IMG/VR virus record: IMGVR_UViG_3300044953_000267
Coordinates: 1 to 62,568 of that record
Length of the DNA stretch: 62,568 nt
Source of the DNA: a virus
Strand: one strand, 5' to 3'
In this document: positions 2,168-62,192 of the stretch, one piece after another
How positions within the stretch are numbered: position 1 is the first letter of the stretch
Layout of the letters: the number at the start of each line of letters is the position of its first letter
The notes under the pieces: generated by a model
The model's input: only the letters and a program-made list of their open reading frames with translations
Databases searched by the model: none
What the model was told of the DNA's origin: nothing
Made by a program: the position numbers and the translations under genes

Positions 2168-3196
2168 TTATTTTTTATATTGATTTATTACATCCAGTAC
2201 TATTGCAGGAGAATCTGTTTCTTTAATTCTATATAATGGTATATTATATTTTTTAGCAATTTCATTTTTATGAATATCATTATAATATGATTCTTTTTTA
2301 AAATTATATTTACATTCTTCTAATGTTTGTTTATGCCAAAAATCTCCATCAAATTCCAATAAAATATCATAATCTATTAAATATGCATCAAACAATTTAT
2401 AATTCAATTCATATTGTTTTTTATATTTGATATTATTATCATCAAGAAATTTATATATTTTTATTTCTAACGAAGTTTCTCCATTGTGTTTAAATATTTT
2501 TTCAAATCCCTTTTTTGATGCACTTAATAAATGTTCTCTCCATTTACATTCGTCTTTTTCTTTAACTTTTTTCCAAATATTTCCAACAACTATTTTTCTT
2601 TCTGGATGTTCTTCCCAATATTTTTTCTTTGCGATTGAAATTTTTTTATTTCTTTGCGGAGTGTATATTTTATTTTTAATATCAGGGTTATTTATAAATT
2701 TTAATCTAGCAGAATTTGATTGTTTTTCGATTGTTTCTTGAGATTTAGGTTTACGTACTGCATTTAAATGATTCTGTTTTACATCTTCTCTTTTCATTGC
2801 GATTTTTGTCAAAATAGAAATTTTTTTTCTATTATTTAAATCAGAAAAATATTTTTTTACAAATTTAGAATGAGTATGACTATGTTCATTCGTTTTTGAA
2901 TAATGCTCTACTCCATATTTATTCATAATTGTCTGTTTAGCTTTGTTTCTAGCATCAGTAGTGTTCATCAATTTTCTAGAACAAGCACGACTGCATGTTG
3001 GCGCATATCCAATCGATAAATTTATGTATTTTGTTGTTTGTTTACATATTTTACATAATATGTTTTCTTTTTTAATAAACTTATTATAATAATATTCAGA
3101 TTGAGTTTTGTGTTCTTTTATCAAATGTGTTCCTAAACTCTTAAAATTTTTACATTCACGTTGACAAAGTTGGCATGTTAATTGAGATAAAATCAT
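2168..3196 (-). CDS. Free-standing homing endonuclease with zinc fingers and Vsr/EDxHD-like nuclease domain
   Basis: 342 residues. The N-terminus has a C2H2-like finger (CQLC ... HLIKEH, about 8-29) and a second Cys cluster (CKIC, CSRAC, about 48-72). A KQTIMNKYGVEHYSK element typical of phage homing endonuclease DNA-binding regions follows, then a Lys-rich middle. The C-terminal nuclease-like domain (about 240-342) shows a Glu in GETSLE, an Asp in LFDAYL, LLEFDGDFWH, and later an Asp/His pair (YNDIHKNE), ending IPLYRIKE. This resembles the Vsr-like EDxHD family. It starts 41 bases inside the end of gp13 and separates gp13 from gp14, as expected of a mobile endonuclease gene. Family assignment is from motifs only. 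Confidence 0.75.
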   Translation of the reverse strand: MILSQLTCQLCQRECKNFKSLGTHLIKEHKTQSEYYYNKFIKKENILCKICKQTTKYINLSIGYAPTCSRACSRKLMNTTDARNKAKQTIMNKYGVEHYSKTNEHSHTHSKFVKKYFSDLNNRKKISILTKIAMKREDVKQNHLNAVRKPKSQETIEKQSNSARLKFINNPDIKNKIYTPQRNKKISIAKKKYWEEHPERKIVVGNIWKKVKEKDECKWREHLLSASKKGFEKIFKHNGETSLEIKIYKFLDDNNIKYKKQYELNYKLFDAYLIDYDILLEFDGDFWHKQTLEECKYNFKKESYYNDIHKNEIAKKYNIPLYRIKETDSPAIVLDVINQYKK

Positions 3197-4436
3197 ACAT
3201 GTTAATACATATTAATCCAAACACAAAAACGCCAACATATATAAGTAAAGGGGTTTTTCTAAGTGTTTCTTGTATTTTTTCTGCTTCAGTTGCTTTAGCA
3301 TCTAATTGAGCAGCACGACCACTTGCTTCTAAGTTTTCTCTCAATTGTGTCATGAGAACTTCTTTTTCCGCAGTTGCTTCACTTCTTAGTTCAGCACCAT
3401 CAAGAGTTACTTCTCCACCCGGAATAGGCACTGTATTATATTTCTGTAAAATACGACCTAAAGTTTCTTTACATAAAGCTAAGAAATACTTTTTAATCCA
3501 TTGTTTTCCAACAGCGTTTATACTCTTATAAACTACATTTTGATATGGTGCATTACTATAATCACTTACAACATCATAATTGCTACCACTACTAAATAAA
3601 GATCCAGTTCCAAATTTATCTTTTTCGACTACATATTCAATATAAACAGTATGATCGTAAGTAGGTATTGGAAATATCTTTAATTTATTATTTACAATTT
3701 CAAAACTATATCCACTTTTACGAACTGTATCATTAAATTCAATAGCTTGTCCGCGAAGTAAATCTTCAAAGATAGGAGTCATCAAAAATTGAGTAGCAGG
3801 ACTAAATCCGGCGAATCCCATTTCATTTAATACATTACTATATGACATACCAGTCATACTAAATGGATCGTAAATACGTGCAAATGCAGGAGGAGGACCG
3901 TGAAATACTCTTCTAACTTCAATTCTGTTATTTGATTCAGATATATTACCTATCAATGCTTGTAAATCATATGTTTGTACACTTTGTGTCAAATGTATTC
4001 CGGTTTTCTTAATATTAACATTTCCACCTACACCAACTTCACTGCCATATTGTTTTGATAATTCCACTATATATGGTATACCACTTCCTTTTACATTCAT
4101 ACCAGTAATATTAGGAGCATTTACCACTGGCATGCCTTGTAAATTTAACATATTATTTCTAATATTAAACTGATTTACTTGTGCTCCATATTCAGTAACA
4201 GCTTCTTCAAAACATGCATAAAAATTAACGTCAATCATTTCTATATCAACAATCGGATATCCTAATCTTTTTGCTGCCCAACTTGCTGCTGCTTGACAAT
4301 CAAATTCAAAATATCCTATACTTCCTGTGGCAGCACCTTCGTTCAAATAAAATCCATACGGAACATTAGATGCACTTACTGCTGATCCACTTCCGGGAAA
4401 ACGTACTCTATCTTGGTCTATATTTGCATTTGGCAT
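3156..4436 (-). CDS. 13: Neck protein gp13 with altered C-terminus
   Basis: 426 residues. The start has RLGYPIVDIEMIDVNFYACF, matching the T4 gp13 RRLGAPIINVEL region. The C-terminal part has KQWIKKYFLALCKETLGRIL and IPGGEVTLDGAELRSEATAE, very like T4 gp13 (LPGGVTIDGQ). gp13 joins gp14 to close the portal vertex before tail attachment. T4 gp13 ends shortly after this block with a short ILVG-type end. Here IYVG is followed by about 24 hydrophobic residues (VFVFGLICINMY...) encoded next to and inside the 5' end of the endonuclease gene, so the natural stop seems to have been lost on endonuclease insertion. Confidence 0.85.
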   Translation of the reverse strand: MPNANIDQDRVRFPGSGSAVSASNVPYGFYLNEGAATGSIGYFEFDCQAAASWAAKRLGYPIVDIEMIDVNFYACFEEAVTEYGAQVNQFNIRNNMLNLQGMPVVNAPNITGMNVKGSGIPYIVELSKQYGSEVGVGGNVNIKKTGIHLTQSVQTYDLQALIGNISESNNRIEVRRVFHGPPPAFARIYDPFSMTGMSYSNVLNEMGFAGFSPATQFLMTPIFEDLLRGQAIEFNDTVRKSGYSFEIVNNKLKIFPIPTYDHTVYIEYVVEKDKFGTGSLFSSGSNYDVVSDYSNAPYQNVVYKSINAVGKQWIKKYFLALCKETLGRILQKYNTVPIPGGEVTLDGAELRSEATAEKEVLMTQLRENLEASGRAAQLDAKATEAEKIQETLRKTPLLIYVGVFVFGLICINMYDFISINMPTLST

Positions 4437-18950: not shown

Positions 18951-20135
18951 TTAAAGTAACCAAGTTAAATTTTCTTTTTTATTACTTCCCAAATTCATTT
19001 GCCATGCTTCATGTGCTTCTAAATTATTTGGTTTGTACACTGCTTCTGAAGCTCCGGTTCTATTAATTCCACTTAATAAAGATTTATTTAAGTCGATTCC
19101 TTGTTGACGCAACTTTAATGCAGTATCTCTGACCCACAATCCTATTCCAAATGACATAACTAAATCGTCATGATGATTTGGCATAGCTTCAGGTTTATTA
19201 CCATTCCATATAAATGTGCTTAATTCGTTCATTAAACGAACTGAACGAACTTCAATACTACGTTCTCTAAAATACATTTCCATTCTAGATACCAATAATG
19301 GTCTTGTTTTCATCGTAGTTGTAAACCCCGGAACCATTTTCTTTTCTTCTCTATAGTATTTGTTACTCAATTGTCTTTCAACGTCTACATATTGAAGATC
19401 TGCGCTGCTATAAAATGTATTTGGATACTGTCTGTCAATAATTTGTTGTAATACTGCCCATCCAATGTTTGCATTTTCTACAACCAACAATGCATTGTTA
19501 TATTCGGTTGCCGCTCCTACCAAAAAGTTACCATAATCTTTAGTTCCTATTTGTCCTTGATATTCAGCAACTTGAGTAAAGCTTTCAACGTCAATTACGT
19601 GAAATGCACTATAATCTGAACTATCACCACGAGCTACGTCAGCACTAATTATATAGTTACGAGTATAGTCTGGATATTCCCAAATCCAATATCCTTTATC
19701 TATTCCTCTCATTTCAATTGGATCTTTTACTTTTTCTGCTTTATAAAATTCTATTGTTGGAATTTCAATAACAGTATTACCGGTTGTTGTAAAATCACAA
19801 TTATGTGATACAATACCATCTACATAGAATAAGTTTCCTCCAGCAACATTAACTATATCATATAATTCTATCTGGGAATTTATAATCTTCTTTGCTTTTA
19901 CAAATGTTAAAATTGAGTTTTCACTATCTATTTCATCTCCAATATTTAATAATTCCGCAGCTATTTCTTTTTCTTTTTGTATGAATTTATGTTCTTTTGA
20001 ACATTTAATAATTTTATTGTTTGATAACAATATTTCAACATAAGAATCTTTAATGACTTTTCTTAAACCAGAGAACGATTGATATCCACTTGGAGTTAAA
20101 ATTTTGTATTTATTGTTATTTTTTAAAGAAATCAT
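18951..20135 (-). CDS. 17: C-terminal half of a split-intein large terminase: C-intein plus TerL nuclease domain
   Basis: 394 residues. Residues 1-112 are a C-intein that carries intein block B (IIKCSKEHKF), block F (LYDIVNVAGGNLFYVDG) and the splice end IVSHN, followed by Cys+1 at 113. The extein from CDFTTTGNTVIEI onward is the second part of gp17, with its RNase H-like nuclease: ISADVARGDSSDYSAFHVID (first Asp), LLVVENANIGW (Glu) and PNHHDDLVMSFGIGLW (third acidic site). N-terminal MISLKNNNKYKILTPSGYQS resembles the start of the AceL-TerL C-intein, where block B also lies in the C-half. The start overlaps the endonuclease stop (ATGA), so translation is coupled. The expected spliced TerL is 246 + 282 = 528 residues. 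Confidence 0.92.
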   Translation of the reverse strand: MISLKNNNKYKILTPSGYQSFSGLRKVIKDSYVEILLSNNKIIKCSKEHKFIQKEKEIAAELLNIGDEIDSENSILTFVKAKKIINSQIELYDIVNVAGGNLFYVDGIVSHNCDFTTTGNTVIEIPTIEFYKAEKVKDPIEMRGIDKGYWIWEYPDYTRNYIISADVARGDSSDYSAFHVIDVESFTQVAEYQGQIGTKDYGNFLVGAATEYNNALLVVENANIGWAVLQQIIDRQYPNTFYSSADLQYVDVERQLSNKYYREEKKMVPGFTTTMKTRPLLVSRMEMYFRERSIEVRSVRLMNELSTFIWNGNKPEAMPNHHDDLVMSFGIGLWVRDTALKLRQQGIDLNKSLLSGINRTGASEAVYKPNNLEAHEAWQMNLGSNKKENLTWLL

Positions 20136-20872
20136 ATTTTTATTCTTATGAATTTACATTTTAGATGGTTTTTAATTTCAATTTGTCGTATTTTATCTTT
20201 TTTTAAATACTTTGGATTGTTATGACGATTTTCATCTATTTCTAATACAACATTTTTTATTGGATCGTAGGCATCTAAAAAATATCCTAACTCTTTTATA
20301 TAAAATTCTCCTCCGTTTTCAGCATGTATAAAATTATATCCGTATTTTTTTCCATAATTTTCAATTATGGATATTGCATTTTTATTATATCTAGGAACTA
20401 TTTGATTACCAATTTTTGATTCTAAATGTTTTAATGTAGATATTCTCTGTTTTCTTTTTGTTTCTATTGAATGTGTTTTTCCCTCCCATGTATTATGATA
20501 TGAAGGACATTTTCTACAAAAAGAAGTCCATACATACTTTTTTCCACATTCACATTTTAATTTATTAATATCACTATTATATTCAATTAAAAATTTTACT
20601 CGATATTTAAAATTATAAGAACCTTTCCACGTTTTTTGTTTTTTTAATATCAATTCTAAAATTTTTGTATGATCATAAATAGATAAATATAGTATTGGAT
20701 TTTTCTTTATTAATATTCTATTTTTTCCTTTTCCGTATAAATGCTTATATAAGTCGTTTTTTTTCAATTCACTAATTGTTTCTGATAATGTATATCTATC
20801 AGTAATCGAATTAAGATTAGTTTTTATCTTCTCCCATCCTCGTTTAACATTAACACTCACTTTTGCATTCAT
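20132..20872 (-). CDS. Vsr-like homing endonuclease between the two terminase/intein halves
   Basis: 246 residues, free-standing. The middle has a zinc-binding pattern (CECGKKYVW..FCRKCPSYH, about 120-141). The C-terminal domain (about 165-246) reads GGEFYI, YFLDAYDPIKNVVLEIDENR, a His directly after, then KKDKIRQIEIKNHLKCKFIR. This spacing of E, D, ExD/E, H and D fits the Vsr-like EDxHD endonucleases described with fractured genes and split inteins. It starts 23 bases inside the N-terminase gene in another frame and ends with an ATGA overlap onto the C-half, so all three cistrons are coupled. It is expected to cut intein-less terminase genes and spread the insert. Confidence 0.85.
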   Translation of the reverse strand: MNAKVSVNVKRGWEKIKTNLNSITDRYTLSETISELKKNDLYKHLYGKGKNRILIKKNPILYLSIYDHTKILELILKKQKTWKGSYNFKYRVKFLIEYNSDINKLKCECGKKYVWTSFCRKCPSYHNTWEGKTHSIETKRKQRISTLKHLESKIGNQIVPRYNKNAISIIENYGKKYGYNFIHAENGGEFYIKELGYFLDAYDPIKNVVLEIDENRHNNPKYLKKDKIRQIEIKNHLKCKFIRIKI

Positions 20873-21704
20873 GTATATACATATTATAGAATTCTTCCAA
20901 TGTTATAAATTTTTTCTCATTCGTTTCTGTGTTTAGAACTGAAATTTTTGACTGTCCCCATAAACAATCACATTCTTGTGCGGATCCTTTTACTCCACTT
21001 AATGCGGTTTGTTCATCTCTCCACTTTTGATTTCTTTCTGGATGTAAGTGCCAAGGCAATTTAATTGTATTAAATTTATTTCTTTTTGCTTCAGCATCAA
21101 CCCATGTTTTATAAAAGAAATTACCAACTCCATTTGGAGTACTCAATATAATTGCACGACCACCTGTACTTAGTGTGTATTGTGCAGAAAGCCATATTTC
21201 TTCAATATTATCAATAAAAGCAGCTTCGTCTATTATTAACAATGAAAGTGCAGCAGAACGACCAGCAGTACCCGCACTACTTTCTGCTTTAATAGTTGCC
21301 CCATTCTTTAATATTAAGGAAAGACGATTATTTTCAGCAAATGGAACTTTTAACCAAGATGGTAAATTATCATTTGCAAAACGAACACGAGTCACTATTT
21401 CTTTACTGGTTTCTTGTGTAATACTAATACAACGAATATTTTTATCTGTATGAAACACCATCATCCATAAACTATATGCCGCTACTAATGTACTAATACC
21501 CATTTGACGAGCTTTTAATATAATATTAAAATCATGTTCAACAATACCAGTTAATGCTTCTTCTTGAAATGGATATAAATCAAAATTAATTGTACCACGA
21601 ATAGGATGTTGAATCTTGACATATTTCTTCATGAAATATATCGGATCTTTTAAACATTTTTTATACTCTTCCTTAATTATTTCTTTTAATGTTTTTTCAG
21701 ACAT
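20850..21704 (-). CDS. 17: N-terminal half of a split-intein large terminase: TerL ATPase domain plus N-intein
   Basis: 284 residues. Residues 1-246 are the gp17 ATPase with Walker A-like KARQMGISTLVAAYSLW and Walker B LSLLIIDEAAFID, followed by LSTPNGVGNFFYKTW (coupling motif) and ending SGVKGSAQECD. Residue 247 begins a 38-residue N-intein with Cys1 (CLWGQSKISVLNTETNEK, intein block A) running to the stop. This is far shorter than the usual ~90-100 residue N-inteins, since block B is in the other half. The junction ECD/CDF places the insertion in the ATPase-nuclease linker region where T4-like TerL has a CxF motif. Its start overlaps the upstream gene by 8 bases. Confidence 0.93.
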   Translation of the reverse strand: MSEKTLKEIIKEEYKKCLKDPIYFMKKYVKIQHPIRGTINFDLYPFQEEALTGIVEHDFNIILKARQMGISTLVAAYSLWMMVFHTDKNIRCISITQETSKEIVTRVRFANDNLPSWLKVPFAENNRLSLILKNGATIKAESSAGTAGRSAALSLLIIDEAAFIDNIEEIWLSAQYTLSTGGRAIILSTPNGVGNFFYKTWVDAEAKRNKFNTIKLPWHLHPERNQKWRDEQTALSGVKGSAQECDCLWGQSKISVLNTETNEKKFITLEEFYNMYIHECKSEC

Positions 21705-61809: not shown

Positions 61810-62192
61810 TGGTGGACGTGGCGAGAGTCGAACTCGCGTGTTTAATATATTAACTATACCAGACTACATGTTTATTCATTTTGAATTTGTTTGTGACAAT
61901 TCTAATAAATGAAAAACAAAATTGTCCTTTAGATTGCTCAATGTTCAATCATATAACACAATCCGATTATATAATTTACTCTGATAAATGTCATTTACTG
62001 TAATATCAGATATTTTACAATAAACGGGCTACCTTTTAATTAGGCAGCAACGGCGACTTCATCATAAGAGAAGTCATATGCAATTACATTGTCGTCTGCA
62101 TTTAGTTTTTTAATGGATTTTTTAGGAAGCCAACCATTATCTTCCACATGCCTAGCATAACTAGTTTATTAAATCGAAACCAGTACACGCCC
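61810..62192 (-). ncRNA. ssrA: Phage-encoded tmRNA (ssrA)
   Basis: The minus strand gives acceptor GGGCGTG (5') paired with CACGTCC (3'), an encoded CCA, a 3' T-arm GCGAGTTCGACTCTCGC and a 5' TGGTTTCGA segment, about 383 bases. An internal frame, 62040-62099, starts with GCA after TAAAT and encodes ADDNVIAYDFSYDEVAVAA then TAA, so it is a proteolysis tag ending in VAA rather than LAA. tmRNA rescues ribosomes stalled on broken mRNAs, and the tag would mark the products for degradation. It is in one piece, not circularly permuted. Confidence 0.93.

What the first reader, a model, noticed from the sequence alone, without database searches (positions are those of the whole stretch)
20132..20872. 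Vsr-like homing endonuclease gene exactly between the intein halves
The endonuclease starts 23 bases inside the N-intein end in another frame and ends with an ATGA overlap on the C-intein start. It has EDxHD-type motifs and a CxC/CxxC cluster. Fractured-gene arrangements with Vsr-like endonucleases are described for other genes (gp41, IMPDH, nrd). Here the whole triple is packed with overlaps, which suggests translational coupling and stoichiometric production of both halves.
Basis: partly seen in the sequence, partly recalled or inferred. Interest (0 to 1): 0.72.

Follow-up and report, generated by a model that had tools for sequence, protein, structure and literature searches.

The report
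Homing endonuclease inside split phage terminase
A phage's DNA-packaging motor gene is broken in two by a self-splicing protein element with a DNA-cutting "homing" gene lodged between the halves; the arrangement is a known kind, but most relatives also carry, just before the cutter gene, a short copy of the cutter's presumed target, which looks like a self-control switch that could be tested.

Summary
On the minus strand, TerL is split into N-half (21704-20850), a 246-codon ORF (20872-20132) and C-half (20135-18951). The halves carry an atypically split intein (38-aa IntN, 112-aa IntC) of the AceL/GOS-TerL kind at ECD|CDF. The middle ORF is a Vsr-like (DUF559/EDxHD-type) homing endonuclease (HEN): its nuclease fold matches Vsr and I-Bth0305I, and the nuclease residues and Zn cluster are invariant among relatives. 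More than 25 viral contigs have the same triple at the same site. 37 distinct intein-less TerLs are joined exactly there, including near-isogenic empty/occupied pairs, one with divergence piled up at the junction (co-conversion). HEN decay and loss, and probable intein re-fusion, also occur, so the whole homing cycle is visible. This is a new member of the "fractured gene" kind (Dassa 2009). Unexpected: 22 of 28 HEN+ elements carry a 15-nt copy of the target core (CAAGARTGTGAWTGT) near IntN's end and the HEN start, mostly noncoding. It is far better conserved than its flanks and does not track the host allele. It resembles the I-TevI operators, so HEN autoregulation is likely but unproven. The window's own copy is degenerate. 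Translational coupling and stoichiometry remain unproven.

The parts
20967..21704 (-). TerL N-extein (246 codons, ATPase half, ends AQECD)
   Evidence: Terminase_6N E 1.4e-15; phrog_5989 E 5.6e-41; intein-less relatives join exactly at codon 246|247
20850..20966 (-). IntN, 38 aa starting at Cys1, plus stop codon (atypical S1-type split)
   Evidence: Translation; aligned start CLWG/CIWG in all relatives. No PDB sequence match on its own
20859..20873 (-). Degenerate copy of the target core (CATGAATGCAAAAGT, 10/15) holding the HEN start codon; L002 has 13/15 at the same place
   Evidence: recognisable only through relatives
20964..20978 (-). Target core CAAGAATGTGATTGT at the 5' extein/intein junction; in empty alleles it runs on into the C-extein
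   Evidence: Exact match; empty alleles
20132..20872 (-). Vsr-like homing endonuclease ORF, 246 aa (P0001)
20498..20872 (-). HEN N-terminal helical region (residues 1-125), shared mainly by TerL-intein HENs; presumed DNA-recognition part
   Evidence: no Pfam or PHROG family
20507..20554 (-). CxC-x9-CxxC cluster (C107, C109, C119, C122), presumed Zn site
   Evidence: Invariant in 25 of 25 aligned HENs
20132..20497 (-). HEN nuclease domain (residues 126-246), Vsr/DUF559-like; also found stand-alone in other phage loci
20186..20308 (-). Presumed active-site residues E189, D200, E211, E214, H217, D226, R229
   Evidence: Conserved over 55 relatives
19800..20135 (-). IntC, 112 aa, ends VSHN before Cys+1
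   Evidence: CatC (6dsl) E 1.4e-18; gp41-1 weak
18951..19799 (-). TerL C-extein (nuclease half, starts CDFTTTGN)
   Evidence: T4 gp17 structures E 3.5e-6; phrog_24361 E 4.7e-13

Best explanation
This is a mobile split intein plus its own homing endonuclease in the phage terminase large-subunit gene. The halves are translated separately, IntN and IntC assemble, and class-1 trans-splicing (Cys1, His-Asn, Cys+1) rejoins TerL at ECD|CDF (inferred from intact residues and the solved CatC relative). The middle gene makes a Vsr-like nuclease that should cut intein-less terL alleles at caagaatgtgat|tgtgatttt, so that repair from the occupied allele copies IntN-HEN-IntC with some flank (supported by empty/occupied pairs and junction divergence; cutting itself not shown). 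In most relatives a 15-nt copy of the left and central target core at the IntN/HEN boundary probably lets the nuclease bind its own start region and repress itself without cutting, as I-TevI does (inferred). In the window this copy is partly decayed.
For: Same triple at the same codon in many contigs and 37 distinct empty alleles among 77 distinct TerLs; at least 8 occupancy changes on the TerL tree. L002/L080 occupied/empty pair, about 90% nt identity, interrupted exactly at the site. L010/L063 pair, 98.5% upstream, with mismatches 10/120 within 60 nt of the junction against 56/3580 elsewhere, P 4e-5. HEN conserved residues, low dN/dS and Vsr/I-Bth0305I-like fold; DUF559 hits in 12 of 55 relatives, best 6e-8. 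IntC to CatC E 1.4e-18. Target-core copy: 22 of 28 HEN+ elements against a mean of 2.4 for shuffled motifs. Of own-host 15-mers tested every 3 nt from -120 to +117, those starting -18 to -9 score 17-21 of 28; the next best is 8. Pairwise identity 0.86 in the copy, 0.33-0.52 in flanks, 0.505 at host third-codon positions; no tracking of own host at wobble sites, 0.64 against 0.61. I-TevI precedent: PMC2988022.
Against: No cutting, splicing or repression is shown. PDB structure matches are moderate (Z 7.1-7.5 to I-Bth0305I and Vsr; RAP-domain mitoribosome proteins score higher, 9.9), and Foldseek PDB E-values are weak. The copy is absent from six HEN+ lineages and degenerate in the window. Of the held-out HEN+ elements only 4 of 7 show it, and one shuffled motif reached 6 there.
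Confidence: 0.85

Rival explanations
1. The target-core copy is only a scar of how the endonuclease gene entered the intein (it arrived with a piece of its terL target) and has no present function.
For: It sits at the boundary where the HEN entered the intein, and collaborative-homing models expect such junctions (PMC2988022). Some HEN+ lineages lack it.
Against: Neutral DNA would have decayed: identity is 0.86 in the copy against 0.33-0.52 in flanks and 0.505 at host third-codon positions. It does not track the host allele. It is commoner in HEN+ (26/35) than in HEN-less elements (2/11), P 0.0015, not corrected for kinship.
Confidence: 0.25
2. The copy is a second homing target, so the HEN alone can re-enter HEN-less split inteins.
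For: The HEN is lost independently of the intein (L154/L151), and HEN-less L148 keeps a 14/15 copy.
Against: Most HEN-less elements lack the copy. In L154/L151 the copy was deleted with the HEN. The copy lacks the right half of the site (offsets -3 and 0 give 8 and 4 of 28).
Confidence: 0.1
3. The endonuclease is decayed or domesticated in this phage, and only the split intein is maintained.
For: HEN decay and loss occur in relatives (L024, L082/L157, L151). The window's copy is degenerate.
Against: The window ORF is full length, keeps all presumed catalytic and Cys residues, and dN/dS to L002 is 0.26.
Confidence: 0.1
4. The middle ORF is an unrelated phage gene, or a RAP-like non-nuclease, that happens to lie between the halves.
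For: The RAP-domain proteins have the highest structural Z. No Pfam or PDB sequence hit above threshold for the window protein itself.
Against: The E/D/E/H/D/R set is conserved. Relatives hit DUF559 and MTES_1575, and viral fold matches are DUF559, homing and Vsr endonucleases. The triple recurs and is absent from empty alleles.
Confidence: 0.03

Closest known systems
Fractured genes with split inteins and Vsr-like homing endonucleases (Dassa et al. 2009, doi 10.1093/nar/gkp095; full text not held here, recalled, cited within)
   Same: Conserved phage gene broken by a split intein with a free-standing Vsr-like endonuclease gene in between.
   Different: Host gene is TerL and the split is atypical (short IntN). 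Whether the 2009 set already had such TerL loci could not be checked.
AceL-TerL / GOS-TerL / Cat atypically split TerL inteins (reviewed in PMC11766414)
   Same: Same host gene, short IntN (25-37 aa) with long IntC (104-115 aa), Cys+1; IntC matches CatC at E 1.4e-18.
   Different: Studied as splicing tools; the endonuclease between the halves is not described in the text found. Here Cys1 as in AceL; IntN is 38 aa.
I-Bth0305I, EDxHD homing endonuclease (3r3p)
   Same: Vsr-like catalytic fold: Z 7.1, rmsd 3.0 over 73 residues, Foldseek prob 0.91.
   Different: Group I intron-encoded; 12-13% identity; different DNA-binding region.
[quoted passage not shown]
   Same: A sequence like the enzyme's own homing site lies just upstream of its ORF (15/20 nt for I-TevI).
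   Different: Different nuclease family and intron hosts; autorepression proven only for I-TevI; not tested here.

Membership tests
Fractured gene with split intein and free-standing endonuclease | Conserved gene broken in two, halves carrying IntN and IntC | tested here: met
Fractured gene with split intein and free-standing endonuclease | Separate endonuclease ORF between the halves | tested here: met
Fractured gene with split intein and free-standing endonuclease | Uninterrupted homologues at the exact insertion site | tested here: met
   37 distinct empty alleles
Vsr-like / EDxHD homing endonuclease | Vsr-like fold of the catalytic domain | tested here: met
   1cw0 Z 7.5 and 3r3p Z 7.1; DUF559 and Vsr hits among viral models; moderate, RAP proteins rank higher
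Vsr-like / EDxHD homing endonuclease | Conserved acidic/His active-site residues | tested here: inconclusive
   E189, D200, E211, E214, H217, D226, R229 conserved, but not superposed residue by residue on I-Bth0305I
Vsr-like / EDxHD homing endonuclease | Site-specific cutting of the empty allele | not testable with these tools
   Needs biochemistry; genetic traces of homing only
AceL/GOS-TerL atypically split intein | Short IntN, long IntC, insertion in TerL | tested here: met
   38 + 112 aa; CatC match
AceL/GOS-TerL atypically split intein | Trans-splicing activity | not testable with these tools
   C1, H111, N112 and Cys+1 present in the sequence
I-TevI-type autoregulated endonuclease | Homing-site-like operator upstream of the ORF | tested here: met
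   In 22 of 28 relatives; in the window only degenerate, 10/15
I-TevI-type autoregulated endonuclease | Binding to the operator and repression of own promoter | not testable with these tools
   No expression or binding data; promoter scan at chance level

The most novel reading that the evidence does not exclude
Vsr-like homing endonucleases of fractured terminase genes control their own expression by binding a conserved 15-nt copy of their homing site (single, or as an inverted repeat in one clade) placed at the intein/endonuclease boundary: an I-TevI-like autorepressor circuit evolved independently in another nuclease family and in split inteins.
Probability: 0.45. Interest if true: 0.65.

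Novelty: new member of a known kind. Interest (0 to 1): 0.5.

Why it matters
Atypically split TerL inteins are used as protein-engineering tools, but how they arose and move is little tested. These loci hold natural near-isogenic allele pairs: empty/occupied (L063/L010, L080/L002) and HEN+/HEN- in one intein (L154/L151). They also hold probable re-fused contiguous inteins nested among split ones. Together these make the birth, spread, decay and reversal of a split intein directly testable. The conserved target-core copy predicts the endonuclease's recognition site and a self-control circuit.

Tried and rejected
Pfam, PHROGs, NCBIfam and PDB sequence searches with the window HEN gave nothing above threshold; only relatives and folds place it. 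Profile searches of PDB sequences with the HEN alignments found no nuclease. The IntN peptide alone has no PDB match. Chance as the source of the target-core copy: in the window alone the motif is at chance level (18 matches against 19.3 expected), so the claim rests on relatives. A coding constraint on the copy: rejected for group 1, since its frame relative to IntN and HEN varies and it mostly follows the IntN stop; in group 2 it is in the IntN frame (QECDYL/QEGDYL), so coding constraint cannot be excluded there. RNA hairpin: possible in group 2, where the core forms an inverted repeat, but group 1 has no second arm. Concerted evolution with the host site: copies match their own host no better than other hosts at wobble positions. 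Promoter claim: sigma-70-like sites are at shuffle level, and TATTTATA-like sequences near the copy were only noted. The key papers gkp095 and gkr669 are not held.

Full report
Observation. The window is an IMG/VR virus record of 62,568 bases with T4-type structural genes: Gp23 capsid and a tail sheath. On the minus strand three ORFs follow each other: TerL N-half 21704-20850, a 246-codon ORF 20872-20132, and C-half 20135-18951, overlapping by 23 and 4 nt. The N-half is a terminase ATPase half that ends AQECD and runs into a 38-residue IntN (CLWGQ...). The C-half begins with a 112-residue IntC ending VSHN before CDFTTTGN. IntC matches CatC, the consensus of the AceL/GOS-TerL atypically split inteins, at E 1.4e-18.

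Relatives. Searches of viral contigs with the HEN and with the C-half gave over 150 loci. A layout scan shows the same order, N-extein / HEN / IntC / C-extein, at the same codon in many contigs. TerLs without any intein are joined exactly at codon 246|247. Among 77 distinct TerL pairs, 37 are empty and 40 occupied. On the TerL tree occupancy changes at least 8 times.

Homing traces. L002 (occupied) and L080 (empty) are colinear at about 90% nucleotide identity and differ by the element exactly at the site. L010 (occupied) and L063 (empty) are 98.5% identical over 3.86 kb upstream. Their mismatches crowd at the junction, 10/120 within 60 nt on each side against 56/3580 elsewhere (P 4e-5), as co-conversion from a diverged donor would give. 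L154 and L151 are 98-99% identical, but L151 lacks the HEN through a 766-nt deletion that leaves the HEN gene's last codons. L082/L157 keep only a HEN remnant, and L024 has lost the HEN N-terminus. L140 and L142/L143 are contiguous. L142/L143 lie within the split clade on both trees and keep a QEPEYL remnant of the QECDYL tail, so re-fusion after HEN loss is the simplest reading.

The endonuclease. C107, C109, C119 and C122 are invariant in 25 fractured-TerL HENs. Over 55 sequences E189, D200, E211, H217 and R229 are invariant, and E214 and D226 nearly so. Members hit DUF559 (12 of 55, best 6e-8), MTES_1575 (9) and NUMOD3 (19). The AlphaFold model has mean pLDDT 89. The C-domain model matches Vsr (1cw0, Z 7.5) and I-Bth0305I (3r3p, Z 7.1; Foldseek prob 0.91), with RAP-domain mitoribosome proteins higher (Z 9.9). 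Viral models matched include DUF559, homing and Vsr endonucleases. dN/dS is 0.06-0.26. The nuclease domain also occurs stand-alone elsewhere, sometimes next to an intact TerL.

The target-core copy. While reading the IntN/HEN boundaries I saw repeats of the terL target. With the terL consensus CAAGAATGTGATTGT, the best match inside the element falls at the boundary (element positions 85-120) in 22 of 28 non-redundant HEN+ elements, against 2.4 on average (maximum 15) for 500 shuffled motifs. As a control, 15-mers of each locus's own terL were tested every 3 nt from -120 to +117 around the insertion: those starting at -18 to -9 score 17-21 of 28, the next best 8. In 15 loci of group 1 the copy has pairwise identity 0.86, against 0.33-0.52 in flanks and 0.505 at host third-codon positions. 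It mostly follows the IntN stop, its frame relative to IntN and HEN varies, variation falls mainly on positions equivalent to wobble positions, and it does not follow the host's own allele. In group 2 the core forms an inverted repeat around a TATTTATA-like spacer. In 7 held-out HEN+ elements, 4 have it (mean 0.58 for shuffles, maximum 6). HEN+ elements have it more often than HEN-less ones (26/35 against 2/11, P 0.0015, not corrected for kinship). The window's copy is degenerate: CATGAATGCAAAAGT at 20873-20859, 10/15, with the HEN ATG inside it.

Interpretation. I-TevI binds a homing-site-like operator upstream of its ORF and represses itself; similar sites lie before I-TevII and I-TevIII (PMC2988022). 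The present copies fit that pattern in another nuclease family. Because the first base triplet of the intein is also TGY, the copy may derive from the 5' junction or from the empty site; both contain the 15-mer. The copy lacks the right half of the site, which may be why it is not cut. This is inference; a scar or a second homing target are rivals.

Verdict. The endonuclease between the intein halves is real and is a new member of a known kind. The boundary copy is the new and testable part, at family level rather than in this window.

Noticed in passing
window 2168-3196 (-): Second, different Vsr-like endonuclease-type ORF (342 aa, LLEFDGDFWHK motif, Cys-rich N-terminus) overlapping the preceding ORF 3156-4436; read from sequence, no significant Pfam nuclease hit.
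   Followed up: partly
window 61810-62192 (-): The phage carries a tmRNA gene (Rfam E 5.7e-44) and two tRNAs.
   Followed up: no
L022 and L055 (TerL N-half end): A related intein sits two codons upstream (AQE|C...). In L022 the host is of the CDTEF type, the type found in empty TerLs that lack the usual Cys+1: a shifted insertion site using another cysteine. L055 has a different nuclease domain (IEFDGLYWHK) behind a similar N-terminal domain.
   Followed up: partly
L018:3113-4741: The TerL N-half and IntN are fused in frame to the endonuclease in one 542-codon ORF.
   Followed up: no
L142/L143 and L140: Contiguous, endonuclease-less TerL inteins; L142/L143 are nested in a split, HEN+ clade, suggesting natural re-fusion of a split intein.
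   Followed up: partly
L002:5950-8741: The portal gene of this close relative appears to carry two further in-frame intein-like insertions that the window's portal gene (18937-17066) lacks.
   Followed up: no
L097, L113, L115, L123, L004-L007: N-extein is close to the window (78-84%) but C-extein is distant (56-59%), while other loci show the opposite: TerL halves look mosaic around the intein site.
   Followed up: partly
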